Under the pieces are notes generated by a model. The model worked only from the letters and a program-made list of their open reading frames with translations. It did no database searches and was not told the origin of the DNA. The position numbers and the translations under genes are program-made. Shown here piece after piece: positions 2,557-60,901 of a DNA stretch of 64,000 bases. Positions within the stretch are counted from its first letter, which is position 1. Each line of letters starts with the position of its first letter. Source of the DNA: Promethearchaeota archaeon (GTDB lineage Archaea > Asgardarchaeota > Lokiarchaeia > Sigyniarchaeales > SOKP01); NCBI GenBank assembly GCA_016930515.1, contig JAFGGO010000085.1, positions 1 to 64,000 of the forward strand, in the 5' to 3' direction.

Positions 2557-4773
<2,217 letters not shown>

Positions 4774-43502: not shown

Positions 43503-43982
43503 TTAGAAATTCAGTGGGGATAAGAATATGGATAAAGCAATAAAAGCCATTGTCGTTCCCAAAATAACGCAGAAAAAATTTGCCATCAGATCGTCGTAGG
43601 GAATTCTGGCTATTCGCACTCGTTTATTTGGGAAGACGGGTACTCCCGAGCAATTTAACGCGTCCAAGAAAATGTGCCCTAAAAAGATAAGATAAACAGA
43701 AATGAAAACAAAAAAACCTAAAGAAGGAGTTACTATCGAAAATGGTGATCCGATCATTATAGCAATAAATAATAGAAGGGGTGAAAATGGCGAATGGGTC
43801 AGAAACCTTCGTTCGTGCTTGAAATATATTTCATGATCGAGCCAATCGTTAGCTTTTCCGGCAAAGTATAACACTGCTAAAATTAACAATAAAAAAAACC
43901 CTAGCGGGTGGAATATGTTATATGTGACGGTTAAAAGGGATCCGAAACCTAACGAGAATGCAATATGGGCGTATTGCTTCAT
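43503..43982 (-). CDS. YdjM-like membrane metal-dependent hydrolase family protein
   Basis: 159 residues with four membrane helices and conserved polar positions on loops: HIAF near the start, DWLDHE, RRFLTHSPFSPLL (about 79-91), GHIFLDALNCSGVPVFPNKR and RIARIPYDD. These His/Asp motifs characterise the YdjM/DUF457-DUF1286 group of membrane-bound putative metal-dependent hydrolases, which may act on lipid or phosphate esters. It is the last gene of the six-gene operon, starting three bases after the preceding stop, with AGGAG 12 bases before the ATG. Confidence 0.8.
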   Translation of the reverse strand: MKQYAHIAFSLGFGSLLTVTYNIFHPLGFFLLLILAVLYFAGKANDWLDHEIYFKHERRFLTHSPFSPLLLFIAIMIGSPFSIVTPSLGFFVFISVYLIFLGHIFLDALNCSGVPVFPNKRVRIARIPYDDLMANFFCVILGTTMAFIALSIFLSPLNF

Positions 43983-43985
43983 GAT

Positions 43986-44324
43986 TCAAATGGCTCCTAA
44001 CCTTTCCTCGATTCTTTTTAATCGAACACTCGCCTGTTTTAGAAGATCGTCTTTTTCCCTTAATTCGCTCATTAGCTGTTCCATTTTCTCACTTTTTTCA
44101 GTTGCATTTTTTGGGTTATATTTTACAACCTCGTTCAAATAGAACGGAAAAAGGTCGCATAATTCTTTATATAAGCTTGCAAGGACTTCGATCGCTTGTT
44201 TTTTGGCTCTCCTAACTTCGATGTTTCCAGAATTGAGCTGATTTAAAGCATTCATCAATTTCGCAATGTATTCCTCCTTAAAGACCGTTTTTTCTAGAAT
44301 TTCTTTAAATAATTCGTCGTTCAA
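43986..44324 (-). CDS. Small coiled-coil protein, operon member
   Basis: The 112-residue, entirely helical protein has a C-terminal coiled coil (about 80-110, KMEQLMSELREKDDLLKQ). It starts at TTG 44324: AAGGAGG in the end of the upstream gene lies eight bases ahead, and the neighbouring ATG is out of frame and stops at once. Its position directly after the large HerA-like gene suggests it is a partner or assembly factor. No family recognised. Confidence 0.75.
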   Translation of the reverse strand: MNDELFKEILEKTVFKEEYIAKLMNALNQLNSGNIEVRRAKKQAIEVLASLYKELCDLFPFYLNEVVKYNPKNATEKSEKMEQLMSELREKDDLLKQASVRLKRIEERLGAI

Positions 44325-44337
44325 ATCATATTCCTCC

Positions 44338-47300
44338 TTAACTAGTGCTCTTGTTTTTTTCTATAATAACTTGTAAATAACTATGTAATTCTTTAATATT
44401 ATCGTAAATTAAAATAACATCATCACTATTTGGGTCCTCCTTAGTTTCAATTAAGCGACATTTGTTCAATATATCAATCGCTAAAAGCGCCCAATCAATG
44501 TTTAAAATTACTCCTAGATACTCAAATAACGATTCCAAAGCTTTATTGTTGAAATCCTTTTCTTTATCACCTTGTGCAATATTAGTCATGAAATTAAGAA
44601 TTGCTTTTTTTTCTTGCTCAAGAGCATCTTTATAATTTCTAGTATTTATTGAACGATAGATCGTAAAAATATCTTGCAAGAACAAAGATATTGAATTCTT
44701 AGCCCGGTTCATGTAAATATTGCGTTTTTCTCTTTTTTCATGATTTTGATCGCGTTCTCGTGGATAAATAATCTCAGGTTCTCTATCCTTAGATTCAAAC
44801 GATATAACCTCTGGGATTTCTAACAAGGCCGATTCTTTCGCTTCAAAATAATCCTTCAACGCTCTTTCGAATTTTTCTCCAACAGAATAGGAAGAACGTA
44901 AAGATTCTGCTCCACTAGCCTCTAAAGGATGTTGTTCTACTAAATAATCGTGCTGAACTAATATTGAAAACAAATCGTCCCTAATCTTGTTTATTTTGTG
45001 CTTAAATTTTCTTTTTTTGACAATTTTTGACGCTTTATTATATATATACTTCATGAGTTCTTCCTTAACTCTTCTTTCACTTAAATTTCCTACCTTATGA
45101 ATAGTTTTCAGTCCATTGAGAAATTTAACGATGTCTTCAACGAAGCCTGAATAAATTTCAAAATCTTTCTCAAACAATGTTTTATTGGCTTGTCGAGCAA
45201 TTTCCTTTTCTGCAAATTCCATATCGTATCCTTGATTCTTCATGAAAGCAACAATCTCTTTTTGGCTTGGGACTCGCAGGTCTTTTAATTCATCGAGATC
45301 TAGCTGAACTGGAAAAGGTTGATCAATATCTGAACGCTTCACAACTATTTCTGCGGGTGTCATCGTAGATAAGTAGTTAATCTGGAAAGTTTCGTTCCTG
45401 CTGGAACTGTAAATACCAGATCCATGAAGCTTCCTGAAATTCATTGAATATCCAATATAAGAAGCGTCGCACTTATTAAATATTCGAAAGGTTGCTAAAT
45501 TCTTGAAAAACGAAAATGCGTGTTCGTGTAAATATCTGGCTTTATTAGCCGAAGCAATCACACCAAAACCAAGGTTAAAAAGACTTCCTAAAAATTTATC
45601 AATTTTGCCATAATTACCCATTTTATTCAAGTATGATTCTTCAAAAAAAGCATCGATGTGAGGGATGACGAGGATCTTTTCTCGCACGCTTTGTCCAACT
45701 GAACTCAAGATATCGGAGTGACGTGAAATGTGAATTATTTTCGCTGCTATTAAAAAAGAAGCAAAAACTTTTCTTCTTATATCGTTCAAAATCGATAAAT
45801 CAATAATAATCGTAGAATCGTCGTTAATGAAATCTAAGGTAGTGATTGCACTTGTACCTTGCTCCGAACTTACAAAAAAAGCCATTTCTTGACCTGTAAG
45901 ATCTTCAAACAATGTCCTCAAGGAATCGGTTGCTGGATTAGTGTTCCATTCGGGATTAGTTTCAATATCTAATTTTATCGAATTTATGTCAAAATCTTTT
46001 TCGAGTTTTGAAATGGATCTTTTAAAAGCCTCCATGATTCGTTCGTCCTTACGGAAGGATATTGAGTATGCATCAGCAACAAAATCCAAGTACGAAGGAT
46101 TTTCTGTATCGTACGGTAAGTCAGATCTTATCAAATCGATGGTGTAGGATTTTCCAAGCTTGAAAAAAGCCAGATTTTCCTCGTATCTCGAGTTCTTGAA
46201 ATGCTTTAGCAATTTAGACCATTCTCCGGTGTGATCGAAGACGATACACGGCACGCTATTTTTAACGAGCTGAATTACGGTTTTCATCATTGCTTTTTCT
46301 TTCATGCCGTCAAACCCATTCAGAAATAATAAGTTTTGTACTTGTTCGAATGTAAATCCGGCTTGAACTTCAGATTCCAAGACTTCGGTGTTAATGGTAT
46401 TTCCCAAAACAACGAAATTTTCGAGATATAAAGGCGTGTTAAACTCGGAAGCAATTTTGACTTCGAGACCCTTTTTGAGTTGTGGAAACAGATCAATGAG
46501 GTTTGTTAATGTTTTACCCTGTTGTAATAAATAAACCAGGTTTGAGCCATTCGTGCGGAAAAACTTATTTTTTAAGAGAGTTAACAAGCATGCAGATAAT
46601 AGGGTTTCATGCTGGGTAAGAGTTATTCTATAATTTGGCAAGCTAGTTTGATATGAATTAATAAGCTCTCTCGCAACTTCGCTTAAAGATACTTCTAATT
46701 CAAGAGCGTTTCTCACGTTCATCTCCGTTACGTGCTTATATTCGCTCGTTGATAAAGTAAAAATGCACCTCCAAATCCCTCCTCTCATGTTCATGAATGT
46801 TTCTCGTTCCATCAATGTTCTTAACGAATTTAAGCTTGTTTGGGTTTTTTGGTTTAATAATTTCCGTGCCTCGCTTTCGAAGCTCTGAAATAGCATTGGA
46901 GCAACCGTTCCTGTATATGTGAAAGGAATCCTTAAGGGAATGATCGATTGAAAAAAACTATCTGGACGCGCTAAGGGTCTATTCTGGAACCCAAAAAAAG
47001 GGGGATTGGCGCGAGCCATATTAAAGAATTTCGTCCCAATGAGGAGTTTTTTGTTCACCAAAGAATAAAGAGTGCTGGGCGTTCCCGATAACCAATAAAA
47101 AAACACATCTTGAAAGGGATTTATGATAGTCATGGAACTATCTTGAAAATTTGAAAGCATAACTTTGAAAAAAATCGACTTCCAAAATAAAATGATATGA
47201 ATAAATGCTACTAACGCCCCCGTTGCGATAGATAAATGAAATCCCGCTCCAATCTTCCACATGAACAAGGTTAGAACTGTAAAAACTAAAATTAAATACG

Positions 47301-48201
47301 TGATTTTCGAGCTATATTCTACTATCAAGCGTCCATAGTCTTGTTTCACATCTTTCGCTGGTGGAACATCAGTTCCTAAGAAGAATGTCCTAAGGGCGTT
47401 TATCAGCTCGAGACCTTTCAATTCGATAATTCTGAAATGATGGAAATTCGCTTTAAATCCCGATTTAGCCGTTGAGATGTATTCATCTAATGTATTCATT
47501 AAATATCTTAACTTGCGAGCGTTTAACATGCCTTTAAAATCGTAATAAAAACAGAAATAAATTGAAGTTTTCATTGAAGAAATTGAGCTTGATATCGAAG
47601 TATTCTTTGAGGTCGTTGCATTTACCACTGGAAAATTAATCAGTGGTGCTTGAATTACTTGATAAGTAAAAGGCACATTTTGGGAATTGAGATATTTAAA
47701 AAAGCTGTTCATGTTGGGATTCACATTTTCTGGTACAATGGAAATCTTAAATATTTTTAATCCAACGGAAATCAAGTCCTTGTGATTACTATAGAAGACC
47801 ACATCAGATCGAGTTTTTAGTTGCCAAAATCTGAAGTTTTTAAAAGGATTAAGTTTGGTAACGCTGCGTAATCTGAAGGTTGAAAAAAAGGCAAGCTTGA
47901 ATATTTCGTCTTTAAAAGCGATTAAAAACAATATCAGACTAAACGAAACAAGTACTAATGTTAGTAATAAATCGTTAAATTCAAGCCAGATATAAACGCT
48001 TAAAAGCGCTAATACTGCGATCACTAATCCACTTTTTATATAAATTATTCTAAGATTCGAATCCTTAAAACAGGGACTAGTTTTCCAAATGTTATAAAAA
48101 TTGGTTGGTTCTTCTACTACGCTCTCGTCCTTGAACTTTTTTCTTAAAACATCGTTAGAACCAAGGGTTTCGTGACCTCTCCCAAGAATTCTATAACTCA
48201 A
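44338..48201 (-). CDS. Large membrane protein with eroded HerA/VirB4-like domain
   Basis: The 1287-residue protein has a duplicated N-terminal module: each copy has a two-helix membrane hairpin (about 52-98 and 300-345) followed by a soluble part with NPF (118; 361), a hydrophobic FW or YW pair, and FF-x-PFTY-x-AP (about 167-185; 416-435). Residues about 600-960 look like a HerA/FtsK/VirB4 ATPase: LYLENFVVLGN, then LLFLNGFDGMKEKAMMKTVI in the Walker A position (no GKT) and CIVFDHTGEWSKLL. ILVIPHIDAFF replaces Walker B. TTG 48201 is chosen: AAGGAGG is seven bases upstream and the start overlaps the preceding stop by four bases. Probably a pseudo-ATPase in a membrane complex. Confidence 0.8.
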   Translation of the reverse strand: MSYRILGRGHETLGSNDVLRKKFKDESVVEEPTNFYNIWKTSPCFKDSNLRIIYIKSGLVIAVLALLSVYIWLEFNDLLLTLVLVSFSLILFLIAFKDEIFKLAFFSTFRLRSVTKLNPFKNFRFWQLKTRSDVVFYSNHKDLISVGLKIFKISIVPENVNPNMNSFFKYLNSQNVPFTYQVIQAPLINFPVVNATTSKNTSISSSISSMKTSIYFCFYYDFKGMLNARKLRYLMNTLDEYISTAKSGFKANFHHFRIIELKGLELINALRTFFLGTDVPPAKDVKQDYGRLIVEYSSKITYLILVFTVLTLFMWKIGAGFHLSIATGALVAFIHIILFWKSIFFKVMLSNFQDSSMTIINPFQDVFFYWLSGTPSTLYSLVNKKLLIGTKFFNMARANPPFFGFQNRPLARPDSFFQSIIPLRIPFTYTGTVAPMLFQSFESEARKLLNQKTQTSLNSLRTLMERETFMNMRGGIWRCIFTLSTSEYKHVTEMNVRNALELEVSLSEVARELINSYQTSLPNYRITLTQHETLLSACLLTLLKNKFFRTNGSNLVYLLQQGKTLTNLIDLFPQLKKGLEVKIASEFNTPLYLENFVVLGNTINTEVLESEVQAGFTFEQVQNLLFLNGFDGMKEKAMMKTVIQLVKNSVPCIVFDHTGEWSKLLKHFKNSRYEENLAFFKLGKSYTIDLIRSDLPYDTENPSYLDFVADAYSISFRKDERIMEAFKRSISKLEKDFDINSIKLDIETNPEWNTNPATDSLRTLFEDLTGQEMAFFVSSEQGTSAITTLDFINDDSTIIIDLSILNDIRRKVFASFLIAAKIIHISRHSDILSSVGQSVREKILVIPHIDAFFEESYLNKMGNYGKIDKFLGSLFNLGFGVIASANKARYLHEHAFSFFKNLATFRIFNKCDASYIGYSMNFRKLHGSGIYSSSRNETFQINYLSTMTPAEIVVKRSDIDQPFPVQLDLDELKDLRVPSQKEIVAFMKNQGYDMEFAEKEIARQANKTLFEKDFEIYSGFVEDIVKFLNGLKTIHKVGNLSERRVKEELMKYIYNKASKIVKKRKFKHKINKIRDDLFSILVQHDYLVEQHPLEASGAESLRSSYSVGEKFERALKDYFEAKESALLEIPEVISFESKDREPEIIYPRERDQNHEKREKRNIYMNRAKNSISLFLQDIFTIYRSINTRNYKDALEQEKKAILNFMTNIAQGDKEKDFNNKALESLFEYLGVILNIDWALLAIDILNKCRLIETKEDPNSDDVILIYDNIKELHSYLQVIIEKNKSTS

Positions 48202-49094
48202 GAGTGTCCCTCCTTCAGATAAATAAACCAATAGATTGCCAAAGTGAATAATATTAGTACAAAAAATAACAAGCTCATTCCATAACACGCTTCGCTAATT
48301 TCGGGATGTAAGATGTTTTGAATCAATAATAGGATGAAAAACAAAATCGATGCGATTGAAGTCCCTAAGAGAAAATAACCCGGTATTTCTTGGGTACTTC
48401 TCTTGTAAAAGATATTTGAAGATATATTTCCTGCGCATTTAATTTTATTGTTATTGTTGTTTTTAAGATTTTCTTCACATGATTTAAGTTGGTACAACTC
48501 TTCGAATTGGTTTTTATCATAACGCTTGTTCAATGAATTTTCCAGGTTTGCTTGTTTTTGTTTAATTTCCCTCAAGAGGAGATTTTTGACTATGTCCGTC
48601 CGTTCTTTTTTAAACGAGAAAATAGAATTCCTATTCTGAGGGAGGGTTAATGAGTTGAATATGAGCATATTATCTGATTTATTTTTTTGAAAAGACTCAC
48701 TTTTTACATGTGAAAAATTTGGCGCTTCTATTTTCCGTAAATCGTAATAAAGGCCGATAAGTTCTGGAATATTTTTAATCGGTATCGACTGACCAGCTTT
48801 TTCGAATACTTTCTCGAGTTTTTTTGTTTTTTCTATCATGTCTGTTTTGAATATACCCTTTCCAAGCTTCTTTTCGATCGAGTCATTAATCATTTCCATG
48901 CAAATCCACGCATTTTTCCCTTGCTCTTCGATGATTTGGGAAAATCCCATTCTAATTCCCGTTTCTCTAACATGATTTATTATCAAATTAATAAAAACAA
49001 TCGATAATTTCTTATTGTTATTTGTTTCTAAACATAATTGTACCAAGTGTCTCAATTTGGCGTCTAATACTCCGTATTTAGGTGTCAGGCTCAT
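48198..49094 (-). CDS. Operon membrane protein with C-terminal hairpin
   Basis: 298 residues: an N-terminal helical cytoplasmic domain (about 1-125, KYGVLDAKLRHLVQLCLETN and FSQIIEEQGKNAWICMEMI), a long polar and Asn-rich linker, and two membrane helices at the C-terminus (about 240-295). AAGGAGAT just before the ATG gives a confident start. Its stop overlaps the start of the 1287-residue gene by four bases, so the two are translationally coupled. No known family; probably a subunit of the same membrane complex. Confidence 0.8.
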   Translation of the reverse strand: MSLTPKYGVLDAKLRHLVQLCLETNNNKKLSIVFINLIINHVRETGIRMGFSQIIEEQGKNAWICMEMINDSIEKKLGKGIFKTDMIEKTKKLEKVFEKAGQSIPIKNIPELIGLYYDLRKIEAPNFSHVKSESFQKNKSDNMLIFNSLTLPQNRNSIFSFKKERTDIVKNLLLREIKQKQANLENSLNKRYDKNQFEELYQLKSCEENLKNNNNNKIKCAGNISSNIFYKRSTQEIPGYFLLGTSIASILFFILLLIQNILHPEISEACYGMSLLFFVLILFTLAIYWFIYLKEGHS

Positions 49095-49096
49095 TA

Positions 49097-49834
49097 TTAT
49101 CTCCTTCTCTTGTTAAATTTATATAGAATATTAGTAGCCAAATCGTTTTTCTGAGTTGCACCTATAGCTATTTCTTCTTCAACAATATATTTATCGATTG
49201 GAACGACTTCTTGATGCTTGAGAATTGCCTTTTCTATTGTAGCCTTTAAAGTTTCCTCATCCGTGTCAAATCTTTTTAAAGTTTGAACTGTAAACACGGT
49301 ATGTGGAAACAATGCAACAAAGGCCAAGATTTGGAGCCCATAACCATAGCTAATGGTGTAGTTTAATTTAAGGTTGTTTTCTAAATCAACAATTTTGAGG
49401 AAAGGAAAATATAAATCATCTGAAAGGACATATTGATAAGGTAATATTACCAAAAAATACCCATTCAATATTATTAATAATAAATTACAATACGCAAATG
49501 GTTGTGATTGTCTTGTTGAGTTAGTTTTTTCGATTGTCTTAAACGCAACACCATAAACACAAATGAAAATAAGTACTATTACAATAACGCTTATTATAAA
49601 ACCTTCTTGGAGAGATTTTGGATGATAACTTTCGTTAGGCGGATCGGCTTTTGAAATACTTGTATTCCATCCAATAAATAGGTTTAGTGTCCAGTCTACC
49701 ATGAGCAATCCATCAGCAGAGTAAGCTTGAAATCGATACCATTCAAAAAAAAAGGAAACAAATAAGATTGCCGTTCCTATTAGGAACATCCATTTGGAAA
49801 AGTCTGCATTACTGCTTTCGGAATTTGTTCCCAA
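49097..49834 (-). CDS. Four-TM operon membrane protein
   Basis: The 245-residue protein has membrane helices at about 13-30, 78-100, 115-138 and 165-185. An outward loop between helices 1 and 2 carries Trp, Asn and Asp residues (WTLNLFIGWNTSISKADPP). The cytoplasmic C-terminal 60 residues are charged and helical and end RRR. It starts at TTG 49834 with GGAGG inside the end of the upstream gene, a rather long 12 bases away. No family recognised; it sits three bases before the next gene. Confidence 0.75.
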   Translation of the reverse strand: MGTNSESSNADFSKWMFLIGTAILFVSFFFEWYRFQAYSADGLLMVDWTLNLFIGWNTSISKADPPNESYHPKSLQEGFIISVIVIVLIFICVYGVAFKTIEKTNSTRQSQPFAYCNLLLIILNGYFLVILPYQYVLSDDLYFPFLKIVDLENNLKLNYTISYGYGLQILAFVALFPHTVFTVQTLKRFDTDEETLKATIEKAILKHQEVVPIDKYIVEEEIAIGATQKNDLATNILYKFNKRRR

Positions 49835-49841
49835 TGATAAA

Positions 49842-51881
49842 TCAATCCTCCAGGAATTTACTATATTTTCGGACCAAATTCTCGTTTAAATCGTTAAGGA
49901 GTTGATTTTTATACGAAGTGAATTCTAATTGTTCGGCTTTTACCTCACTTGCTTTCAGCGTATTTTTTATTTCCAAGTCAGATAGTAACTTAAACTTAAC
50001 GGGATTCAAACCGTGCTCGTAAACAAATTGATCAAGGAAAGGACCTTCTAAACGATCGGCTATTAGAATTAAATCAGAATCGTCAATCTCTAAAGCACGT
50101 CCATATTCTCCGTCATCCTGTTGCTTTTTTAAATTTCGTTGACTTTGAAAAAATGAATATGAAATAAAGGATAGTCCCGAAATCATCAAAATCATCATTC
50201 CAAAACTCACCATCAGAATGGGAAAAGTCATTGAACGATTAACCACGGTAAATAATAGCAATCCAATACCAAATAAGGAAAATGGAATTGAAAATATTGT
50301 TGCTTTTTTTAAAGTTTTATCGCAGCTATTAATATATTCCTCAAGAAAAGTCTCGTTCTTTACAAGCGAATTTGTAATGAAGTGTTTTTTTTCCAAATAA
50401 TCTAATAAATCAGAGAGTTGGGATTCGCTAACCACATGCATATTTTTCTTTTTCTGATAGGCAAAAGGAACTTTCAATGCTTCGAGAAATCTAACATCTC
50501 CTTTTGAAACGAGTATTGGTGTAATTATAGTTTTTATAACTAGTTCTTTTGTTTTTAATATCCTTGTATTACCAGAGAAAGGTTTTTGAACGGATAAATC
50601 CTCTTGAAAATATTTAGATAGATAAGAAAGAACGGATCCTGCCTTATCGATGTTAGATAACAATTTCTGAGTAGTTATTTTTAAAGCCTTAATTCCAGAT
50701 TCTACGAGCAAGCGTTCCTTGTAAGGATTTAACGAATCTATTCCTGCTTTGGGATGATATTTGATCTCTTCTTCTCCGATTTTCAGATCTCCCGTGGTTT
50801 TGGCGAGCTTAATTGGCACGATGAGAACAATCTCCATCAAATCAGACACTTGGACGCTTTTAATCCCAATTGCATCTACTTGTTGGAATAATTCTATATA
50901 CATTGTTTTTCTTGAAGGAAGTAATGAGAAACCTCCAGAATGAAGAAAATTCTCAATTTTTCTGATCAAACTAGAAGATTCTTTCCAATCCAATAGTTCA
51001 TCCTCAAGCTCTGCTCTATTTTCGCTCTGGTTTTCTTGAAACATAGAATTTTTTAGAATTTTTTTTTGAAGAGTGCAATTAGTAACTTGTTGGTTTTTAT
51101 CTTCTTCAAAATCCTCAATGTTGAAATCAGGAAGATTCTCCTCTACAGATTCAGTTTCTATCAAATCATATATTTCTTCAATATCTAGTCTATTCTTAAG
51201 AGAATCATCTATATCTCCCAAAGTTTCAATTTGCTCTAAACTTTTAATCGATGCATTATCAGCATTTAAGGTTAATTTTATATCTATTGATTTTGCATCT
51301 TTTTCTTCAAATTTAGACTTTACAGGAACGAAGTTTTTCAAGCTTTCTTGCTGCATTTGATATTTAGCTGCTCTAATATATTTCTCAGCGGATTTTGCTG
51401 CAATTCCTTTTATCGAGCATAATTGACCGATATTTTTGGACGCTAAATCTTGAAGGGTATGAATTCCTGCTTGTCTAAATAAATTGGCAGTTGTCACACC
51501 AATTCCGTTTATTTGACTAATATCTGTCGTTCCTTTCTTTACGCTCGCCACGAAAGGCTTACTAGTATCTTCTTTAGAATTAACTTCTTTGACGACCATT
51601 TCTTGTTCTCCTTTAGGTGTTATAATATCAGCAACGTCCGCGATAGCTTGCTTCTTGTCCGTATCTGAAATTATAATTTTAACTTCCGATAAAATACTTC
51701 GAAATAAATTTATCCACTTTTTACTCTGAATTTTTTCGGATATTTCGATTCCTTTTCGAATTAAAACGAGCGCTTGTTCGTAATCGAGAGTTTCAATGGC
51801 TTGATTTACGCTATCTTCAAGAATCGTGAGATCCCATTCTACTTCGAGGTCTTGTTCGTCAATTTGATCGATTGTAGTCAT
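49842..51881 (-). CDS. HhH-domain membrane protein, first gene of the operon
   Basis: 679 residues. N-terminal helices (1-75, TPR-like) are followed by a helix-hairpin-helix pair at about 120-172 (INGIGVTTANLFRQAGI, then LCSIKGIAAKSAEKYI), a DNA- or protein-binding fold seen in RadA and Pol beta-type proteins. An acidic disordered stretch follows (about 200-285), then a folded domain (310-510), a two-helix membrane hairpin (about 545-600) and a cytoplasmic end with a possible nucleotide- or peptide-binding fold. AAGGCG precedes the ATG weakly. The mixture of DNA-binding-type HhH and membrane anchoring is unusual. It heads the six-gene operon. Confidence 0.8.
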   Translation of the reverse strand: MTTIDQIDEQDLEVEWDLTILEDSVNQAIETLDYEQALVLIRKGIEISEKIQSKKWINLFRSILSEVKIIISDTDKKQAIADVADIITPKGEQEMVVKEVNSKEDTSKPFVASVKKGTTDISQINGIGVTTANLFRQAGIHTLQDLASKNIGQLCSIKGIAAKSAEKYIRAAKYQMQQESLKNFVPVKSKFEEKDAKSIDIKLTLNADNASIKSLEQIETLGDIDDSLKNRLDIEEIYDLIETESVEENLPDFNIEDFEEDKNQQVTNCTLQKKILKNSMFQENQSENRAELEDELLDWKESSSLIRKIENFLHSGGFSLLPSRKTMYIELFQQVDAIGIKSVQVSDLMEIVLIVPIKLAKTTGDLKIGEEEIKYHPKAGIDSLNPYKERLLVESGIKALKITTQKLLSNIDKAGSVLSYLSKYFQEDLSVQKPFSGNTRILKTKELVIKTIITPILVSKGDVRFLEALKVPFAYQKKKNMHVVSESQLSDLLDYLEKKHFITNSLVKNETFLEEYINSCDKTLKKATIFSIPFSLFGIGLLLFTVVNRSMTFPILMVSFGMMILMISGLSFISYSFFQSQRNLKKQQDDGEYGRALEIDDSDLILIADRLEGPFLDQFVYEHGLNPVKFKLLSDLEIKNTLKASEVKAEQLEFTSYKNQLLNDLNENLVRKYSKFLED

Positions 51882-52044: not shown

Positions 52045-54033
52045 TTAACGATTGAATTCTATATTATAATTTTCTGTCTCCATATATACTTTCACACCTG
52101 CGTCTTTTAAGGTGTCGAGAATTTTAAAAGATTCAATGTCACCTTGTTCGATAAAGGGGTTGTTTATCAACCACACTTCTTCGAGTGAATTTAAGGAAGA
52201 AAACGAATTGGGAAGCGATATCAAAAGGTTGTTATGCAGGTACAATTTTCGAAGAGATGAAAGGTTGCCAATCGATTCGGGTAGCGTTTCTAGGGCGTTA
52301 TTTTGGAGGGAAAGGATTTCAAGAGATGAGAGGTTTCCAATGGTTTCTGGTAGCTTTTTTAACCTGTTCCACGAGAGATTTAACTCTTCAAGGCTTGCAA
52401 GATTCCCAATTGAGTCAGGAAGTTCACTCAAGCGGTTATCGTAAATTAGTAACTTTTTAAGTGAATTGAGTTTACCTATAGTTTCGGGTAAAGAAGTCAA
52501 GATATTTCTTTCCAGAGAAAGCCCTTGGAGCATTACAAGGTTTCCGATTGATGTTGGAAGCGTGGAGAGTTGATTGTCATGAATCCATATTTCTCTCACT
52601 AGTTCAAGATTTCCCATGGATTCAGGGAGTTTATGTAATTGATTTGATTGGAGGAAAAGGAACCTGAGTGATGCGAGGTTTCCAATTGATTCAGGAAGTT
52701 CCCTTAATTTATTAGTGAATAACCACAGTTGTTGGAGTGAAGTGAGATTCCCAATAGTTTCTGGAAGATATTCTATTTCATTTTTTTGCAGGTATAATAT
52801 TTTAAGGGATAAAAGATATCCAATTGATTCTGGAAGCTCCTTGAGCATGTTCGCTTCTAAATCTAAAGTGAGTAGGTTATGGATGTTTCCAATAGATTTT
52901 GGAACTCTCAATAACCGATTATTTGAGGCTAAAATAACTTGTAATGAAGTAAGATTAGAGATCGTCTCGGGAAATGATTCAAGTAAATTATTTGATATAT
53001 AGATTTTTTCTAAGCAAGAAAGATCACCAAGAGACTCTGGAAGTTCCTTTAATAAATTATTTTGCAGATAAATCCTTTTAAGAGAGCTTGATTTGCCAAT
53101 ATTTTCTGGGAGCGAAGAAATCCTGTTAAATTGAGCCTCCAACGCTTGAAGCGAATAGAGTTTCTCAATATTGTTAGGCAAAGATTCGAGTTTATTATTA
53201 CCTATTGACAAAGATTTTAACGAAGACAAGTTGCCAAGAGATTCTGGAAGGTAAATTAAATTATTTTCGCTAAGATCCAAGATTCGCAATTTTTCAAGGT
53301 TACCGAGAGAATCAGGAACTTCAATCAACTTATTACGCCTTATATTTAATTCTCTGAGCGTTTTAAGGTTGCCCATCCATTCAGGAAGCGTTTTTAATCG
53401 ATTGTGTGTCAACCATAACTTTTTGATGGTAAGGTGATTTTTTAATCCCTTAAGAAGATTGAGATCGGTAATGTACTTTTGTCGAAGGTCTAAAATGTTC
53501 TTGACCGTGGGGATTGATTTGAAGTAATGTTGAATGGATTTTGATACAACTTCGATTTCCTCCTCATTGAAATAGCTTAGATAAGCTTGCTCTAAAAGGT
53601 ATTTAACAACCGAGGGATAACCACTCGATATTCGCTTGGCGATTTCATCTTTAAAGATCTTTTTAGCTAGGGGATCCCCAACTTCTGACAGTTTTTTAAG
53701 CAAGGGAAAAGAAAGATTGCTGTGAAGCAAACGCGTGTCGTAATTATTTTCATTCCAGGTTTGAAGGTTTGAACAATGTCCCCAGAATTCTTGAATTGGT
53801 GTAATATCGTGAATTCCCCCCTCGTATATTCGATTATTATGTAAGGTTTTGAAAATTTCAGATGCTTGATCGATGGTATCTATTTGGTCGTATTCGGATG
53901 CTTGATCCTTAAAAATTTTCAGGACAAGTCTCATGCATTGTAAGAACTTTTCTCCGTTAATGTATATGAAAGTTTTATCGTCTTCAAGTCTTAGCTTTAT
54001 GTAGGCATTGACCGTAAATTCCATGGAATCCAT
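52045..54033 (-). CDS. 19-repeat leucine-rich repeat protein, Lokiarchaeal type
   Basis: The 662-residue protein has an N-terminal domain of about 190 residues (INGEKFLQCMRLVL, EFWGHCSNLQTWNENNYDTR, LLHSNLSFPLLKKLSEVGDP) that I associate with the LRR proteins abundant in Lokiarchaeia. It is followed by 19 tandem leucine-rich repeats of 23 residues with the LPESIGNLxSL consensus, then a short C-terminal cap. The repeats are nearly identical in length and form a bacterial/plant-like LRR solenoid for protein binding. A link to the many small GTPases of such archaea is plausible but unproven. AAGG precedes the ATG. Confidence 0.92.
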   Translation of the reverse strand: MDSMEFTVNAYIKLRLEDDKTFIYINGEKFLQCMRLVLKIFKDQASEYDQIDTIDQASEIFKTLHNNRIYEGGIHDITPIQEFWGHCSNLQTWNENNYDTRLLHSNLSFPLLKKLSEVGDPLAKKIFKDEIAKRISSGYPSVVKYLLEQAYLSYFNEEEIEVVSKSIQHYFKSIPTVKNILDLRQKYITDLNLLKGLKNHLTIKKLWLTHNRLKTLPEWMGNLKTLRELNIRRNKLIEVPDSLGNLEKLRILDLSENNLIYLPESLGNLSSLKSLSIGNNKLESLPNNIEKLYSLQALEAQFNRISSLPENIGKSSSLKRIYLQNNLLKELPESLGDLSCLEKIYISNNLLESFPETISNLTSLQVILASNNRLLRVPKSIGNIHNLLTLDLEANMLKELPESIGYLLSLKILYLQKNEIEYLPETIGNLTSLQQLWLFTNKLRELPESIGNLASLRFLFLQSNQLHKLPESMGNLELVREIWIHDNQLSTLPTSIGNLVMLQGLSLERNILTSLPETIGKLNSLKKLLIYDNRLSELPDSIGNLASLEELNLSWNRLKKLPETIGNLSSLEILSLQNNALETLPESIGNLSSLRKLYLHNNLLISLPNSFSSLNSLEEVWLINNPFIEQGDIESFKILDTLKDAGVKVYMETENYNIEFNR

Positions 54034-54229: not shown

Positions 54230-54541
54230 ATGGTAATAACAGAAAAGAATCTTAAAGATATCGTAAAGTACAAGCAAAACACGAAAAATGCTCATAAATG
54301 CCCATTTTGTAAGAAAAAGATAGAAATTGGAATTGAATATGAAATGTTGAGCAAGTTGAAAGAAGAAAACCGCTTTCCATACCCTCACGTGGTATTACAC
54401 GGTAATCCTCTTCATGCAATGGTGTGCTATATAGATAGTAATTTAACTGTAAGAAATGTGAGCGTCATCAAGAGTGTTGAAATATCTCGCGATTCAGAAA
54501 CATTTGCACAATTGATGAATAAATGGGCAAATCCGTATTAA
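54230..54541 (+). CDS. Small zinc-binding protein upstream of Hel308
   Basis: 103 residues: a basic N-terminus, a Cys pair HKCPFCKKKIEIGIEY, then YPHVVLHGNPLHAMVCYIDS containing further His and Cys residues that could complete a zinc site, then a strand-helix tail. The pattern HGNPLHAMVxYID is familiar to me from uncharacterised Asgard proteins. It starts 14 bases before the Hel308-like gene and is co-transcribed with it, suggesting a partner in the same DNA-repair pathway. The GAGGT site supports the start. Confidence 0.75.
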   Translation: MVITEKNLKDIVKYKQNTKNAHKCPFCKKKIEIGIEYEMLSKLKEENRFPYPHVVLHGNPLHAMVCYIDSNLTVRNVSVIKSVEISRDSETFAQLMNKWANPY

Positions 54542-54555
54542 TTCGGTGAAAAGCC

Positions 54556-57075
54556 GTGGATTTAATCGATTTTGCAAGCGAGACGAAAAAATCGCAACTT
54601 TTAAAGGACAAGAAGGACGAAATTTTTGCCTATATATCTGACGAAAGAATTTTAAGGGCCCTCTTCGAATCAAAAATTTTTAGATTGAGGAATATTCAGA
54701 AGGAAACTATAGAAAAAGGTCTTTTTTTTGGGAAATCATTTTTAATATGTGCTCCGTCTGGGAGTGGAAAAACGCTAATTGGAGAGTTGTGCGCCGTGAA
54801 CACGGCACTTCAATGCTTAGGCAAGGCGGTATATCTTGTTCCTTTTAAAGCTCTTGCTACTGAAAAATATGTTCACTTTAAAAAAACTTATGAAAAATAT
54901 GGCTTGAAAGTGATACTTTCCATTGGAGATTACGACGCTGAAGATTCGGAATTGGCTAGGGCAGACGTGATAGTGACAACATACGAAAAATTGGATTCCT
55001 TGGTCCGAAACTTCCATTATAAGGAATGGATTTTCGAAATTACGAGTATTATTATCGATGAGATTCATATTATTGGCGAAGGCGATCGCGGCCCTCGTTT
55101 GGAGTCCTTGATCGTGAGACTCAACGATTTTTTAAACCACCCCCAGATCGTAGGCCTCTCCGCAACTATTGCGAATCCAGAAACGTTTAATTCTTGGCTA
55201 TCTTCACTCGGAAATATATCTACTCTTATTTATTCAGATCATCGACCTGTGCCTTTGCATTACAACATACTTCGCACTCAAAACAAGGAATCAACTATCA
55301 AGAAATTAACGAGCAAGACATTGGAAGAAGGAGGTCAAGTTGTGGTTTTTTTAAACACGAGAAAAAATACAAGGGAACAGGCCTTTAACTTGAAAGAAAC
55401 CGTAAAACGCTTTATCATAGAAGAAGATCGCCAAAAACTCGTTAAGATAGCTAATGACTTGAAAGAAGTGAAGGGTTTTAATCAAGATTTAAAGAAGATA
55501 CTCCTCAATGGTGTAGCATTCCATCACGCAGGGCTCTTACCAAAGGAACGAAAGCTCGTGGAGGATAACTATCGACAAAAGCTAATCAAGGTACTTTGCT
55601 GTACAACCACGCTTTCGGCAGGTGTAAACATACCTGCTCGAGTCGTCATTTTAAAGAACTTTAAAAAATATGTAACCTCTGGAAAAAGGATTGGTAATTT
55701 CGAGGGTTTTCACGAGAATAGTGATGGATTTACCTACTTTAAAGCGTTTACATCAAATGAGGTCTTTCAAATGCTTGGAAGAGCAGGAAGACCGGGCTTA
55801 GATAGCGTAGGAAGAGGATATATCTTAGTAAAAGATCTTGAAGAGAAAGAATGGGTGGAGGAATATTACTTTAAATCGCTTGATATTCAATCGCTTGAAT
55901 TGATACCTCGATATAACGACCTGCTTTCCTCTCTGAACAATATGAATACTCTCATGGAACAAACCTTATTGAGAGTATATGAAGAAGAAAAAGTTACTCT
56001 CGAAAGAATTGTTTCTTTTTTTGAAAAAACCTATTTTTGGTATAATACCAAGGAAAATGATAGGATGCGTCAAATTCCAATTGAGGAACTATTGATGATT
56101 CGCGAGATCTCAGCATTGAATGTGCTTAAATTGCATTCCCATCCAAATAAAGTAGAGGAATTAAAGAAAAGAGACAATGGTGTAAAAATCACGGGTTTAA
56201 CAAAATCGACGATTAATGGATATGTCAAATCGGAATTTGGCGTTTTCTCCTGCCAGTTCGACATAAATACGGGTGTTCGATGTAGTTGCGGGTTTGAGAA
56301 TGGGATTTCAGATAATTTTGCAAAACAAGAATTTTCGTTTGAATTTTGCGACCATATAACCTTGTTTCTAATGCACCTCCTCAAGCGAGATCAAGGCAAT
56401 TTCTTAAAACACATTAATGATATCGTTCCTAAATCCGTCAAAAATCAATATGTGCTCAATTACTTGTTCGACAAGGGTCTTTTACTTAAGATTGCAGGAG
56501 AAAACATATGTTGTTCAAGATTTGGTCGTTTGATCGTTTCTCTTTATTTATATCCCATGTCCGGAGTGTTAATAAGACATCGTCTTGAAAATATCGAAAT
56601 AAAGACATATAAGGACCTCATCACGGAAGCTTACGGCATACTTAAAGCGGAAAAAAAGGTTCGAGACAACAAGATGCTCCTTCCTGTTGTAGAATACGCC
56701 GACGAGGTACCATTGGATCAAATCATTGAAGATCACGGAATATTTGCCGGGGATTTATACGCGGTTAAGAATAACATGGAACGCGTCATGGTATTCATAA
56801 AAGAAATTGCCAGACATTTGAGCGAAACCGATCCTTCTCTCGTTGAGGTAACTGAAATGGCCGAAACCTTAACTATAAGATTAAAGCACGGAATTAAAGA
56901 GGAGTTATTTGACTTGGTATTGAGGCTTCCAAATGTAGGAAGGTCGAGGGCTCGAATTCTTTACGACGCTGGCTTCCACACAGTAGAACAAGTAAGAAAG
57001 CAGAACTACTACTTGCTTCACAGAAAAACGGGATTAGGCGTTCGAACTTGTAAGAAATTAGTCGCCAAGGAATAA
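54556..57075 (+). CDS. Hel308-like helicase with inserted SWIM zinc finger
   Basis: The 839-residue Ski2-type superfamily 2 helicase has Walker A in APSGSGKT (66-73), DEIH (168-171), LSATIANPE, and motif VI QMLGRAGRPG (405-414); the C-terminus has an HhH-like sequence (RLPNVGRSRARILYDAGFHT). Hel308 unwinds DNA at stalled replication forks. An insertion near residues 566-600 contains C576, C578, C598 and H600, matching the CxC-xn-CxH SWIM zinc-finger pattern, not present in typical Hel308. It starts at GTG 54556, 14 bases after the zinc-protein gene. Confidence 0.9.
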   Translation: MDLIDFASETKKSQLLKDKKDEIFAYISDERILRALFESKIFRLRNIQKETIEKGLFFGKSFLICAPSGSGKTLIGELCAVNTALQCLGKAVYLVPFKALATEKYVHFKKTYEKYGLKVILSIGDYDAEDSELARADVIVTTYEKLDSLVRNFHYKEWIFEITSIIIDEIHIIGEGDRGPRLESLIVRLNDFLNHPQIVGLSATIANPETFNSWLSSLGNISTLIYSDHRPVPLHYNILRTQNKESTIKKLTSKTLEEGGQVVVFLNTRKNTREQAFNLKETVKRFIIEEDRQKLVKIANDLKEVKGFNQDLKKILLNGVAFHHAGLLPKERKLVEDNYRQKLIKVLCCTTTLSAGVNIPARVVILKNFKKYVTSGKRIGNFEGFHENSDGFTYFKAFTSNEVFQMLGRAGRPGLDSVGRGYILVKDLEEKEWVEEYYFKSLDIQSLELIPRYNDLLSSLNNMNTLMEQTLLRVYEEEKVTLERIVSFFEKTYFWYNTKENDRMRQIPIEELLMIREISALNVLKLHSHPNKVEELKKRDNGVKITGLTKSTINGYVKSEFGVFSCQFDINTGVRCSCGFENGISDNFAKQEFSFEFCDHITLFLMHLLKRDQGNFLKHINDIVPKSVKNQYVLNYLFDKGLLLKIAGENICCSRFGRLIVSLYLYPMSGVLIRHRLENIEIKTYKDLITEAYGILKAEKKVRDNKMLLPVVEYADEVPLDQIIEDHGIFAGDLYAVKNNMERVMVFIKEIARHLSETDPSLVEVTEMAETLTIRLKHGIKEELFDLVLRLPNVGRSRARILYDAGFHTVEQVRKQNYYLLHRKTGLGVRTCKKLVAKE

Positions 57076-57561: not shown

Positions 57562-58077
57562 TTATTTCTGGATATAAAATAAATCTTCTTGCGTCTTTTT
57601 CAAAAAACCTTCTCGAAAACAGATATCTATAAATCTTTTAACTTTTTCTTTTGAAATTCCGTGATCTTCGGCAAGCATGTAAATGACATGTTCCGGAAAT
57701 CGTTTAAATCTTTGATCGAGTTTTCTTAAAACCATTTTGAAAAAATCGTATTTAGTAAGTTCTTTGTTGCTATAAATATTATCAAAATTACTCGAATTAG
57801 AAATACTATAATCTCCATCTGCTGAAAAATCTGGAAGTCTACCTGTTTCTTTTAAGGACAAGCTATTTTGCAGTTCAATTAATCTTTTTCTTGCGGCAGT
57901 TGCTCCCTTTATTACTTCTGAAGTCGATTCTAATTGAGTAACTATGTGAAAATGCCCGCATCTCAAGCATTTTTTACGTTTTTGAGTCGTCTTCACAAGC
58001 GAATAATTATTACACTTGAAACAACAAAATACGAAATAGGGAGTTACGTCTTTTTTCCATCCCCTTTCTTTCATCAA
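57562..58077 (-). CDS. Zinc-ribbon and winged-helix protein in Hef operon
   Basis: 171 residues. The N-terminus contains a zinc ribbon (FCCFKCNNYSLVKTTQKRKK then CLRCGHFHI), reminiscent of the archaeal DUF1922 family. A helical region follows (VIKGATAARKRLIELQ), a polar linker, then a winged-helix-type domain (about 105-171, YDFFKMVLRKLDQRF and LAEDHGISKEKVKRFIDICF). It overlaps the end of the Hef-like gene by four bases and is its downstream partner. DNA or RNA binding in replication-fork repair is inferred. Confidence 0.78.
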   Translation of the reverse strand: MMKERGWKKDVTPYFVFCCFKCNNYSLVKTTQKRKKCLRCGHFHIVTQLESTSEVIKGATAARKRLIELQNSLSLKETGRLPDFSADGDYSISNSSNFDNIYSNKELTKYDFFKMVLRKLDQRFKRFPEHVIYMLAEDHGISKEKVKRFIDICFREGFLKKTQEDLFYIQK

Positions 58078-60326
58078 TCCTTCTCCTCATCGTTAATCTT
58101 TTGTTCGTGCACATTTCTCAAGATAAAAAACAGTTCTTCGTGATCGTCAACGCATATGATTCTTAAATCACTCTTTTCTGAAAATTCTATAGCGGCTCTC
58201 TTGAGTGATCTTTTGTGCCCCTCATATTTTTCCTTAAATTCAGAAAAATCAAGAATATTTAATACTAACTCGTATTTTTCGTTGGAAACTTCGTTGAATT
58301 TTTCGACATCAAATAGTTCAATATCCTCGGCTGGATAGATCTGAACAAGTACGTTTTTGCCAATAACCACATGTTCCTGAGATTCAACAAAAATATGTGT
58401 CATGTTCCATTCACCCAATTTTTTCCTCAAACCCCATCTCATGGGGAGGTTCTTGCTTATTGTAAAATCAGCTTGTAACATTATAGGATTCTTATTGATG
58501 GCTTTGATTGTGAAATCTTCTAAGCTAAATTGTTTTGATCCTTTTAATCCCTTAATGTTATTCTTGGAGATATCAGTATTGGTCCCAATATCTAAGTATT
58601 TATGAATTTTAGCCCGCACATTACCCTGCCCCTCTGATATGTTTGATTCCCCAGAAATATTGACTAAAGAACTCGCATTAAAATCAATTTGGTTCTGGCT
58701 ACTAGTACCAATGGATTCGTTAAGTATTCGATTCGAGTTCTTGAGATTGTAATTCATCTTCTTAAGTCTATTGAGTGCAATGTTCAGATAAATTTCGTCT
58801 TTAGAATTCTTTGTATATAGTATGAGGACTCTACCCTTTCGATGACGAGCCGTGCGTCCTTTCCTTTGTATCAACCGAATTTCTGAGGCGACTACATCGT
58901 AGAATATAACGAGATCGCATTCAACAATATCCAATCCCTCTTCTGCCACATTTGTAGCTACTAGAATGTTATATTTTCCTCGTTTGAAATCATCAAGGAT
59001 CTGAATTTGTGTTTTCTGGGATAAACCCGTGTCTTTTTTTGATTTAGTAGCTTGACCGACGAATCTTGCGGCTTTAATAGATTGTATCTTGTTTAATTTT
59101 TCTACAATATTTAATACTGAATTTCGGAGCTTAACGAATACTAAAATTTTTAATTCAGGGCTTGATTGAAGCTCCTTTCTCAAATAATTTTCAAGCACGT
59201 GATATTTAGGATGTATTAACTTTTCTGGTGTGAAATCCTCACATTTTTGAAGATCAATGAAAATTCTTCTTATCTGCTGGTTAGAAGCCAGGATTTTTAC
59301 TGCCTTGGAACTATTTTTTTTCCGAGCGTCACTCCGTAACTTTTCAAGGTATTCTAATAACACATCAAGCCCCTGTTGCTCGACAAGTTCTATCATGTGA
59401 TATAAAATCAACGCTTGAGCGTTAACGGATATTGCTCCATAAGAGCCCGTCTTTTCACCTTCACCCCTGAGTATATCAATTAAGTCAGAGTTAAGCTTTA
59501 CAAGGTCCTTCCTTAAGACTTTCTTTGTTAATGGGCTGGATTCCTTCGATATAAATCCATTTTGGGCGAGATAAATCAACCTTTCTTCTAGGATCTGTTC
59601 TATTGCCTCAACGGAATCTTCCATCAACTGAGTTCTTTCTACTCCGATCTTGAATATATCCATTGGTTTGAGATACGACTTCACATCATTATCTTTTCTC
59701 GAACGGATGTGAATGTTTTCCACGGGCACATGCAAGCTCTCGCATAAAGTTAAAATCTTCTCTTTCGTGGATCCAGGAGATGCAGTTAAGGCTAAAATAA
59801 ATCCGTCTGAATTCTGCTCAAGAAATTTATCCGCAATCAAGATGTACGGATAATCTCCAGAGGCGTGGTGTGCCTCGTCTATTACTAACAAGCAAACTTT
59901 CTTTAAAGCGTATCTATTGCTAACCAGATCGTTTCTTAGGGTTTGGGGGGTGTAAAACAACACCTGTCGGTTCTTAAATATTTCTAACCTTTTTTCAGGA
60001 GGAATTTTTCCCGTGAGGATTCCAAACCTATCTTCGGGAACTTGAAGCTTATATGAGAAAGATTCGTAATGCTGATTGATTAACGGCCGAGTAGGGGCCA
60101 ATATTATAATTTTACTTCCCGCAGGCACCATTGTTAATGTTTTTAACGCTACTAACACGGCAATAACGGTTTTTCCAAGTCCTGTGGGCAACACTACTAA
60201 AGAATTTTTACCCGCACACTTGTCTGCGATTTCAACTTGGTATTTTCTATATTCTATTAATTGATTTTTAGTGTTTTTTTTTTCGAGAGTTTTTTCTTCT
60301 TGAATATCGTTTTTAATATCACTCAT
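58074..60326 (-). CDS. Hef/FANCM-like helicase with eroded C-terminal domain
   Basis: The 750-residue SF2 helicase of the Hef/FANCM/MPH1 group opens with RKYQVEIADKCAGKNSLVVL and LPTGLGKT (Walker A), then VLAPTRPLI-type ILAPTRPLINQHY, VIDEAHH and LTASPGS, and in the second half FVGQATKSKKDTGLSQ and RLIQRKGRTARHRKGRV. A helical insert between the helicase halves (about 205-380) is typical of the family. The C-terminal ~150 residues have the size and position of the ERCC4 nuclease domain of euryarchaeal Hef but no ERK-type catalytic motif is visible. It acts on stalled or branched DNA. It starts at ATG overlapping the upstream stop (TAATG). Confidence 0.9.
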   Translation of the reverse strand: MSDIKNDIQEEKTLEKKNTKNQLIEYRKYQVEIADKCAGKNSLVVLPTGLGKTVIAVLVALKTLTMVPAGSKIIILAPTRPLINQHYESFSYKLQVPEDRFGILTGKIPPEKRLEIFKNRQVLFYTPQTLRNDLVSNRYALKKVCLLVIDEAHHASGDYPYILIADKFLEQNSDGFILALTASPGSTKEKILTLCESLHVPVENIHIRSRKDNDVKSYLKPMDIFKIGVERTQLMEDSVEAIEQILEERLIYLAQNGFISKESSPLTKKVLRKDLVKLNSDLIDILRGEGEKTGSYGAISVNAQALILYHMIELVEQQGLDVLLEYLEKLRSDARKKNSSKAVKILASNQQIRRIFIDLQKCEDFTPEKLIHPKYHVLENYLRKELQSSPELKILVFVKLRNSVLNIVEKLNKIQSIKAARFVGQATKSKKDTGLSQKTQIQILDDFKRGKYNILVATNVAEEGLDIVECDLVIFYDVVASEIRLIQRKGRTARHRKGRVLILYTKNSKDEIYLNIALNRLKKMNYNLKNSNRILNESIGTSSQNQIDFNASSLVNISGESNISEGQGNVRAKIHKYLDIGTNTDISKNNIKGLKGSKQFSLEDFTIKAINKNPIMLQADFTISKNLPMRWGLRKKLGEWNMTHIFVESQEHVVIGKNVLVQIYPAEDIELFDVEKFNEVSNEKYELVLNILDFSEFKEKYEGHKRSLKRAAIEFSEKSDLRIICVDDHEELFFILRNVHEQKINDEEKD

Positions 60327-60901
60327 TATTGCTCAACTTTTACCTCATAGCGATCGACTTTTAAGTTAAACACGGGTTTGTTAAGTCTTTTATAAGAGAG
60401 AATGATGCGACCTAGTTCTAATCCAAGCCTTGAGGGATATATAAGATCGTTTCCGTTCTTGTAAAAAAAATATGGATGATGGTTCTTTACTGCTTGGACC
60501 ATGGCTGATAATTTTGATGAGGTATCTTTAAGGTCAAAACCTTTTCCTCGTTTAATCTCTAAAAAAGCATAAGTCAAATCTCCCAGCTTTTCAGCGTGAT
60601 CTTTTTCAAGCGTGATGATATCCGGAATTTTATCTAGAAAACTTTCGGTCCTCAAATATATAATACCGTTTTCCACGCTCTTTTCTAAAATATGGTTTTT
60701 AAAAGTCGAACGCATTGTTTTTTGCGTTTCTAAGATCAAATCAATTGCTAAATGCGTTTCTTGAGGATTTAAACCGAAGTACCTTGCAAGTTCCGTGAAA
60801 TTAAATTTTTTTTCGTATTTTCCCTCAAAAGAGTTCAAAATTTTTACGATATCTTTAATCTTTTCAATAAGCGAGTAATTTAGATCTGATCTCATTGTCA
60901 C
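60326..60901 (-). CDS. Winged-helix-type protein, first gene of Hef operon
   Basis: 191 residues. Helix-turn-helix-like sequence FTELARYFGLNPQETHLAIDLI (about 34-55) suggests a winged helix at the N-terminus; a second globular part has KNHHPYFFYKNGNDLIYPSR and a C-terminal strand region. It starts at GTG 60901 or ATG 60895, and its TAA overlaps the Hef ATG by one base. It is a probable DNA-binding regulator or accessory factor of the helicase. No family name is certain. Confidence 0.7.
   Translation of the reverse strand: MTMRSDLNYSLIEKIKDIVKILNSFEGKYEKKFNFTELARYFGLNPQETHLAIDLILETQKTMRSTFKNHILEKSVENGIIYLRTESFLDKIPDIITLEKDHAEKLGDLTYAFLEIKRGKGFDLKDTSSKLSAMVQAVKNHHPYFFYKNGNDLIYPSRLGLELGRIILSYKRLNKPVFNLKVDRYEVKVEQ

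What the first reader, a model, noticed from the sequence alone, without database searches (positions are those of the whole stretch)
43503..51881. Six-gene membrane operon with a duplicated, eroded HerA/VirB4-like protein
Six minus-strand genes are coupled by overlaps or gaps of 2-13 bases: HhH-TM protein, 4-TM protein, TM-hairpin protein, 1287-residue HerA/VirB4-like protein, coiled-coil protein, YdjM-like membrane protein. The Walker A position reads NGFDGMKEKAM and Walker B reads VIPHID, so ATP hydrolysis is unlikely, yet FDHTGEW and fold context remain. All but one of the products are membrane proteins. No ATPase, relaxase or pilin is nearby. It resembles no secretion, conjugation or Ced-type DNA-import locus I know; a membrane-bound DNA-handling or signalling complex is a guess.
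Basis: partly seen in the sequence, partly recalled or inferred. Interest (0 to 1): 0.8.

Follow-up and report, generated by a model that had tools for sequence, protein, structure and literature searches.

The report
Asgard membrane–recombination cluster with dead VirB4/HerA
Asgard archaea, the closest known relatives of eukaryotes, carry a conserved set of membrane proteins built around a DNA-pump protein whose engine has been dead since before the group diversified, and its genes sit beside DNA-recombination enzymes, which suggests an undescribed machine that handles DNA at the cell membrane.

Summary
It is not a local decay product. The missing Walker A lysine is shared by every relative read across the Asgard phylum, while true HerA/VirB4 proteins in the same genome keep GSGKT. 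The pseudo-ATPase tree follows the host families. In Lokiarchaeota the order HhH-TM / 4-TM / TM-hairpin / G4 / coiled-coil is conserved; the YdjM gene is not part of it.

Next to the operon, and next to its relatives in at least 15 families, lie DNA-recombination genes: a Hel308-like helicase with a SWIM zinc finger (window 54556-57075), Hef, RadA/RecA paralogs, XPD-like and XPG/FEN-like enzymes, plus large extracellular proteins. Arbitrary stretches of such genomes rarely have them (2/40 against 41/53). Hel308-SWIM and the operon also co-occur (35/5/5/20 of 65 genomes).

Best reading: a membrane complex on a dead VirB4/HerA scaffold that works with a recombination team, perhaps for DNA exchange between cells. 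Architecture and linkage are well supported; function is inferred. I found no description of it in the open-licence papers searched.

The parts
49842..51881 (-). G1, 679 aa: N-terminal helical repeat-like domain, RadA/Rad51-type helix-hairpin-helix, alpha/beta domain, TM hairpin, C-terminal helices
   Evidence: operon partner in 17 Loki loci
49097..49834 (-). G2, 245 aa, 4 TM, conserved cytosolic tail (consensus QExLDLDKLIAxEEL)
48198..49094 (-). G3, 298 aa, helical domain plus C-terminal TM hairpin; overlaps the G4 start by 4 bases
44338..48201 (-). G4, 1287 aa pseudo-VirB4/HerA: two (TM hairpin + VirB4-NTD-like) modules, dead ATPase core, C-terminal helical region matching the winged-helix-like tail of distant relatives; a GTG at 48288 would give 1316 aa
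46288..46320 (-). degenerate Walker A of G4 (NGFDGMKEKAM)
45652..45669 (-). degenerate Walker B of G4 (VIPHID)
43986..44324 (-). G5, 112 aa coiled-coil protein, follows G4 in most complete Loki loci
43503..43982 (-). YdjM-like 4-TM protein; co-directional here but not conserved with the system
54556..57075 (+). Hel308-like SF2 helicase with SWIM zinc finger (CxC..CxH), intact motif I and DEIH; phylum-wide neighbour of the pseudo-ATPase
54230..54541 (+). 103-aa protein with CxxC pair, next to Hel308-SWIM in several Loki loci
   Evidence: cluster c12, 8 loci
57562..58077 (-). zinc-ribbon protein with C-terminal winged-helix-like region (DUF5817-like), homologous to cluster members in other Asgard families
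   Evidence: (probability 99.9 to the L064 gene, 93.4 to the f8 gene)
58074..60326 (-). Hef-like SF2 helicase (no ERCC4 nuclease domain found)
60326..60901 (-). 191-aa protein overlapping the Hef-like gene; conserved in 4 Loki loci
61068..63992 (-). 974-aa extracellular alpha-toroid protein with C-terminal TM; its ortholog lies just upstream of G1 in L059 and an alpha-toroid protein lies in the L065 cluster
   Evidence: the true start may lie beyond the window end
52045..54033 (-). LRR protein upstream of G1; membership uncertain (LRR genes also precede solitary G4 paralogs elsewhere)

Best explanation
G4 is a conserved pseudo-ATPase of the VirB4/HerA superfamily. It cannot pump DNA itself. 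It sits in the membrane by its TM hairpins and serves, with small TM partners (G1-G3, G5 in Lokiarchaeota), as a scaffold. This scaffold works with a recombination team encoded next to it: Hel308-SWIM and Hef/XPD-type helicases as active motors, RadA/RecA paralogs, an XPG/FEN-like nuclease in other lineages, and a zinc-ribbon protein. A large surface protein encoded nearby may recognise partner cells or substrates. I think it most likely handles DNA that crosses the membrane (uptake or exchange followed by recombination). Shown by computation: fold, dead P-loop, conservation, linkage, co-occurrence. Inferred: scaffold role, DNA handling, and DNA exchange (the weakest step; about 0.4 on its own).
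For: Fold: Foldseek top hits VirB4/TrwK (E 1e-14), HerA 4d2i (1e-11), VirB4 4ag6 (TM-score 0.61 on the target). Walker A lysine absent in every member read, intact in true HerA/VirB4 of the same genome. Pseudo-ATPases set apart from three true HerA-type rows (support 98) and each multi-row family but one a single group; 16 groups need 15 changes, the minimum. Neighbours: Hel308-SWIM, RecA/RadA paralogs, XPD, XPG, Hef within about 10 kb in 15 families, against 2 of 40 arbitrary 20-kb stretches. Nine f8 loci share one operon with RadA-like, XPD-like, pseudo-HerA, Hel308-SWIM, RecA-like and XPG-like genes, the end cut by the contig in two. Co-occurrence of Hel308-SWIM with G3 in 65 Loki genomes 35/5/5/20; 31 of 36 listed pairs on one contig, 28 within 6 kb. 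Helicases and two of three RecA-like proteins keep P-loops.
Against: No channel (VirB6/CedA), pilin or relaxase was recognised. G1, G2, G3 and G5 have no detectable homologs outside the family; other lineages have different small TM proteins. The RecA-like partner is not in this window. The system is patchy: two congeners and several near-complete Loki genomes lack G4. No expression or biochemical data. The neighbour families in the control were chosen because they recur at these loci, and the Fisher test ignores shared ancestry.
Confidence: 0.5

Rival explanations
1. A membrane-anchored repair, replication-restart or chromosome-segregation complex acting on the cell's own chromosome, with no DNA import.
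For: Same neighbours (Hel308, Hef, XPG, RadA paralogs), which by established knowledge act on stalled forks and recombination intermediates; no channel or pilin recognised.
Against: Does not by itself explain the VirB4-type membrane modules or the large surface proteins (M28 peptidase, alpha-toroid, Ig-like) in the clusters.
Confidence: 0.25
2. A defence system that recognises and destroys incoming DNA at the membrane, like HerA-nuclease systems.
For: HerA-type anti-phage complexes are among the closest folds; helicase and nuclease neighbours; solitary G4 paralogs next to LRR genes.
Against: No specific PADLOC match to G1-G5; only generic helicase matches, and one weak hit for a distant relative. 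Tree follows host families with no sign of horizontal spread; defence HerAs, to my knowledge, use an intact P-loop.
Confidence: 0.1
3. A domesticated, degraded conjugation or secretion apparatus that moves proteins or signals, not DNA; the repair genes are neighbours only.
For: VirB4 fold with TM-hairpin modules.
Against: Linkage to recombination genes recurs in 15 families and exceeds background; Hel308-SWIM and the operon co-occur.
Confidence: 0.1
4. A decaying local relic: an inactivated HerA gene without function.
For: The window copy is a fast-evolving member (end branch 0.85) and has lost motif residues kept by its relatives.
Against: Full-length open frames with conserved invariant residues, conserved operon, phylum-wide inheritance.
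Confidence: 0.02

Closest known systems
VirB4 ATPase of type IV secretion systems (TrwK of R388)
   Same: Closest fold; N-terminal VirB4-like domain with TM hairpin before a HerA-type core
   Different: Walker A lysine lost in all members; N-module duplicated; no VirB2/6/8/10, relaxase or VirD4 recognised
Ced/Ted DNA-import systems of Thermoproteota (CedA, CedA1, CedA2, CedB, CedD, CedE; PMC9905601, PMC11868833)
   Same: Small set of TM proteins plus VirB4/HerA-like proteins with TM helices; CedB and CedD together supply the parts of a VirB4 N-terminal domain; Ted loci often hold HerA, Rad50 and ParA-like genes
   Different: There CedB/CedD are described as ATPases powering import; here the VirB4/HerA subunit is dead and helicases/RadA paralogs are encoded beside it; no CedA or pilin found
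HerA-NurA end-resection complex
   Same: HerA superfamily, DNA-repair context
   Different: A true HerA-family protein exists separately in this genome; no NurA identified at this locus; membrane modules added
Shu complex (SWIM protein plus RAD51 paralog; PMC6316741)
   Same: A CxC...CxH SWIM motif protein encoded beside RadA/RecA paralogs
   Different: Here the SWIM motif sits inside a Hel308-like helicase and the set is tied to a membrane pseudo-ATPase; no relation beyond motif and context was tested

Membership tests
VirB4/HerA superfamily (fold) | RecA-like HerA/VirB4 core | tested here: met
   profile continuity with the split Asgard forms
VirB4/HerA superfamily (enzyme) | Walker A GxxGxGK[ST] | tested here: not met
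   absent in all members read; present in L099-L101 of the same genome
VirB4/HerA superfamily (enzyme) | Walker B acidic pair | tested here: not met
   window reads PHID; kept partly only in some distant relatives such as L065 DE
Type IV secretion / conjugation | VirB6, pilin, VirD4, relaxase partners | tested here: inconclusive
   no Pfam match among the neighbours scanned, but small TM proteins can escape Pfam
Ced/Ted DNA import | active VirB4/HerA-type ATPase (CedB/TedB) | tested here: not met
   the ATPase is dead in every member read
Ced/Ted DNA import | CedA-like channel and CedA1/TedC pilin | tested here: inconclusive
Ced/Ted DNA import | DNA-damage induction and DNA import activity | not testable with these tools
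   needs expression and genetics
HerA-NurA | NurA nuclease partner | tested here: inconclusive
   no NurA among scanned neighbours; a separate true HerA-family protein exists at G000 C126
Hel308 helicases | DEAD + Helicase_C + archaeal helicase domain 4, intact motif I and DExH | tested here: met
   window 54556-57075; extra SWIM motif
Known anti-phage defence systems (PADLOC) | specific system proteins | tested here: not met
   no match for G1-G5

The most novel reading that the evidence does not exclude
An Asgard-wide machine, inherited from an early Asgard ancestor, in which a VirB4/HerA motor lost its engine before the group diversified and became a membrane scaffold for RadA paralogs, a SWIM-bearing Hel308 helicase and XPF/XPD/XPG-type enzymes, mediating DNA exchange and recombination between cells: a proto-sexual system in the lineage from which eukaryotes arose.
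Probability: 0.3. Interest if true: 0.95.

Novelty: categorically new. Interest (0 to 1): 0.8.

Why it matters
If right, the lineage that gave rise to eukaryotes carries an ancient, undescribed link between the cell membrane and homologous recombination, built on a pseudo-ATPase. It would give a concrete candidate for how Asgard archaea exchange or repair DNA, a question bearing on the origin of sex, and would show a VirB4/HerA motor retired to a structural role. The category call rests on the combination: the parts belong to known families, but no known system tested here matches the whole. If DNA import were shown, it would be better called a new variant of type-IV-secretion-derived systems.

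Tried and rejected
Local-relic idea: rejected by phylum-wide conservation. YdjM as member: rejected, not conserved. Mobile-element origin: no relative confirmed in viral contigs, and the tree follows host families. Homology of G1-G3/G5 to the TM proteins of other Asgard clusters: profile comparisons gave no support; a resemblance of G1 to the f8 c5 protein and of G3 to HEPN-TM proteins, seen by eye, did not hold. Pilin or VirB6-like assignment of the small TM proteins: no Pfam support. Fold search with G1: only the HhH matched (RAD51/RadA, NusA), nothing at E <= 0.001. Sequence searches of G4 against the PDB gave nothing significant. Known defence system: no PADLOC support. Literature: no report of this cluster found in the open-licence library; subscription papers and preprints were not searchable, so absence is weak evidence. 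An all-against-all profile run hit the time limit; the targeted part was completed.
Full report
1. Observation. The six co-directional genes are present with the stated spacing. The window lies in G000; close relatives with named records are Lokiarchaeota, so the organism is almost certainly a Lokiarchaeon. Pfam gives HhH for G1, a sub-threshold YdjM for the last gene and a marginal HerA central domain for G4 that starts after the P-loop.

2. What G4 is. AlphaFold2 (23-row alignment, 1176 residues, mean pLDDT 72.7, much of the core near 90) and Foldseek return TrwK/VirB4 of the R388 type IV secretion system first (E 1e-14, alignment over most of the chain), then HerA (4d2i, 1e-11), and Thermoanaerobacter VirB4 with target TM-score 0.61. 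Global TM-scores on the query are low (0.2-0.27) because it is long and multi-domain. In other Asgard classes the protein is two genes: an N-module (TM hairpin plus domain, 250-357 aa) and a C-part (dead core plus winged-helix-like tail, 480-535 aa). Profile alignment shows the C-part matches G4 residues ~560-1140 and the N-module matches G4 twice, at ~31-278 and ~350-543. So the Lokiarchaeal form is a fusion with a duplicated membrane module.

3. Dead engine, old loss. Across some 150 aligned stretches (many the same gene fetched twice) the GK[ST] of Walker A is absent in every family member with that region; outside Lokiarchaeota the usual text is GG(T/S)xxER, in Lokiarchaeota usually one residue shorter, NG(T)xxxR(E/D). 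Three HerA/VirB4-type proteins of the same genome keep GSTGSGKT-type loops and serve as positive controls (L099-L101). Two more families (f23, f27) have still more divergent members with degenerate loops, read by eye. In a 59-row tree the pseudo-ATPases separate from those three and the 16 groups need only 15 changes, as expected for vertical inheritance; the tree is a quick one with long branches, and deep order is not resolved. A profile of the C-part hits 175 of 228 Asgard genomes, a count that includes weak matches to true HerA/VirB4 proteins.

4. The conserved unit in Lokiarchaeota. G1-G2-G3-G4 occur in this order in 17 loci, one of them interrupted by an insertion, usually followed by G5. 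YdjM does not recur. Solitary G4 paralogs exist, up to four matches per genome (some fragments), several directly downstream of LRR genes.

5. Neighbourhood. Clustering of neighbours showed a helicase beside the operon. It is Hel308-like and carries a SWIM-type CxC..CxH motif in Lokiarchaeota and in f7, f8, f12, f15, f18 and f23. RadA/RecA-like proteins, XPD-like, XPG/FEN-like and Hef/XPF-like enzymes lie near the pseudo-ATPase in other families. Together, families with at least one such gene within about 10 kb are f1, f2, f4, f5, f7, f8, f10, f12, f13, f15, f17, f18, f19, f23 and f27. Two families without (f11, f29) are known only from contigs of 8-10 kb. In f8 nine of nine loci share one operon, its end cut by the contig in two. 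Control: with the same profiles, 2 of 40 arbitrary 20-kb stretches from such genomes have a hit, against 18 of 27 Lokiarchaeal and 23 of 26 other loci. The families were chosen because they recur here, so the control measures background frequency, not an independent discovery.

6. Co-occurrence. In 65 Lokiarchaeal genomes Hel308-SWIM and G3 are both present in 35, one alone in 5 and 5, both absent in 20 (Fisher 5.5e-8; 0.0002 for genomes at least 90% complete; 0.03 at 95%), without correction for shared ancestry or assembly gaps. Of 36 pairs tabulated, 31 share a contig and 28 are within 6 kb.

7. Other parts in this window. 57562-58077 is a zinc-ribbon protein (DUF5817-like) homologous to genes in the f15 and f8 clusters. 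58074-60326 is a Hef-like helicase. 61068-63992 is an extracellular alpha-toroid protein with a C-terminal TM, homologous to one directly upstream of G1 in L059 (32% identity) and more weakly to one in the L065 cluster. Other lineages have M28-peptidase-like or Ig-like surface proteins in their clusters. G1's HhH is of the RadA/Rad51 N-terminal type.

8. Mechanism. Shown: a dead VirB4/HerA-like membrane protein, conserved, genetically linked to recombination enzymes whose P-loops are largely intact (one of three RecA-like proteins in f8 has lost its own). Inferred: it is a scaffold; it holds or guides DNA; neighbours supply the force. By analogy with Ced/Ted, VirB4/HerA-like membrane proteins of archaea serve DNA import (PMC9905601, PMC11868833), which makes DNA exchange the leading specific guess, but neither channel nor pilin was recognised, and a repair or segregation role on the cell's own chromosome fits nearly as well.

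9. Comparison. It resembles VirB4 in fold but fails the catalytic test, and Ced/Ted in general style but not in tested parts. SWIM proteins with RAD51 paralogs form the Shu complex in eukaryotes (PMC6316741); the co-location here is a suggestive parallel, not evidence of descent. A recent study of Asgard RadA paralogs (PMC12722695) examined RadA/Rad51/DMC1 phylogeny; the passages read do not mention this cluster.

10. Limits. Metagenome-assembled genomes; unnamed families; no search beyond Asgards was possible; the literature library is incomplete; functions are from family membership.

Noticed in passing
L032, L033, L034, L035, L039, L069 and window 52045-54033: LRR-protein genes sit upstream of solitary G4 paralogs in Lokiarchaeota, often directly; in L032 a short CDC48 N-domain-only gene precedes the LRR gene. 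An LRR gene also lies upstream of G1 in the window.
   Followed up: partly
window 35540-37042: One ORF fuses a zinc/manganese ABC-3 permease to a SAM-dependent methyltransferase, near a ZnuA-type binding protein (38017-39024).
   Followed up: no
window 2557-4770: Haem peroxidase family gene with clearly higher GC (about 0.45 against 0.33-0.37 around it), perhaps acquired by transfer.
   Followed up: no
window 13377-15461: 694-aa protein with a PGAP2IP-type Exo_endo_phos domain at its C-terminus, a family best known (from memory) from eukaryotic GPI-anchor processing.
   Followed up: no
L135-L143 (family f8): Nearly invariant operon of about 15 genes with RadA-like, XPD-like, pseudo-HerA, Hel308-SWIM, RecA-like (one without P-loop) and XPG/FEN-like genes plus several unknown families.
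   Followed up: partly
L088: Contig labelled Candidatus Hodarchaeum mangrovi carries a Lokiarchaeal-type G4; transfer or a binning error.
   Followed up: no
L034, L087: G4 paralogs broken into two frames, so some copies are probably pseudogenes.
   Followed up: no
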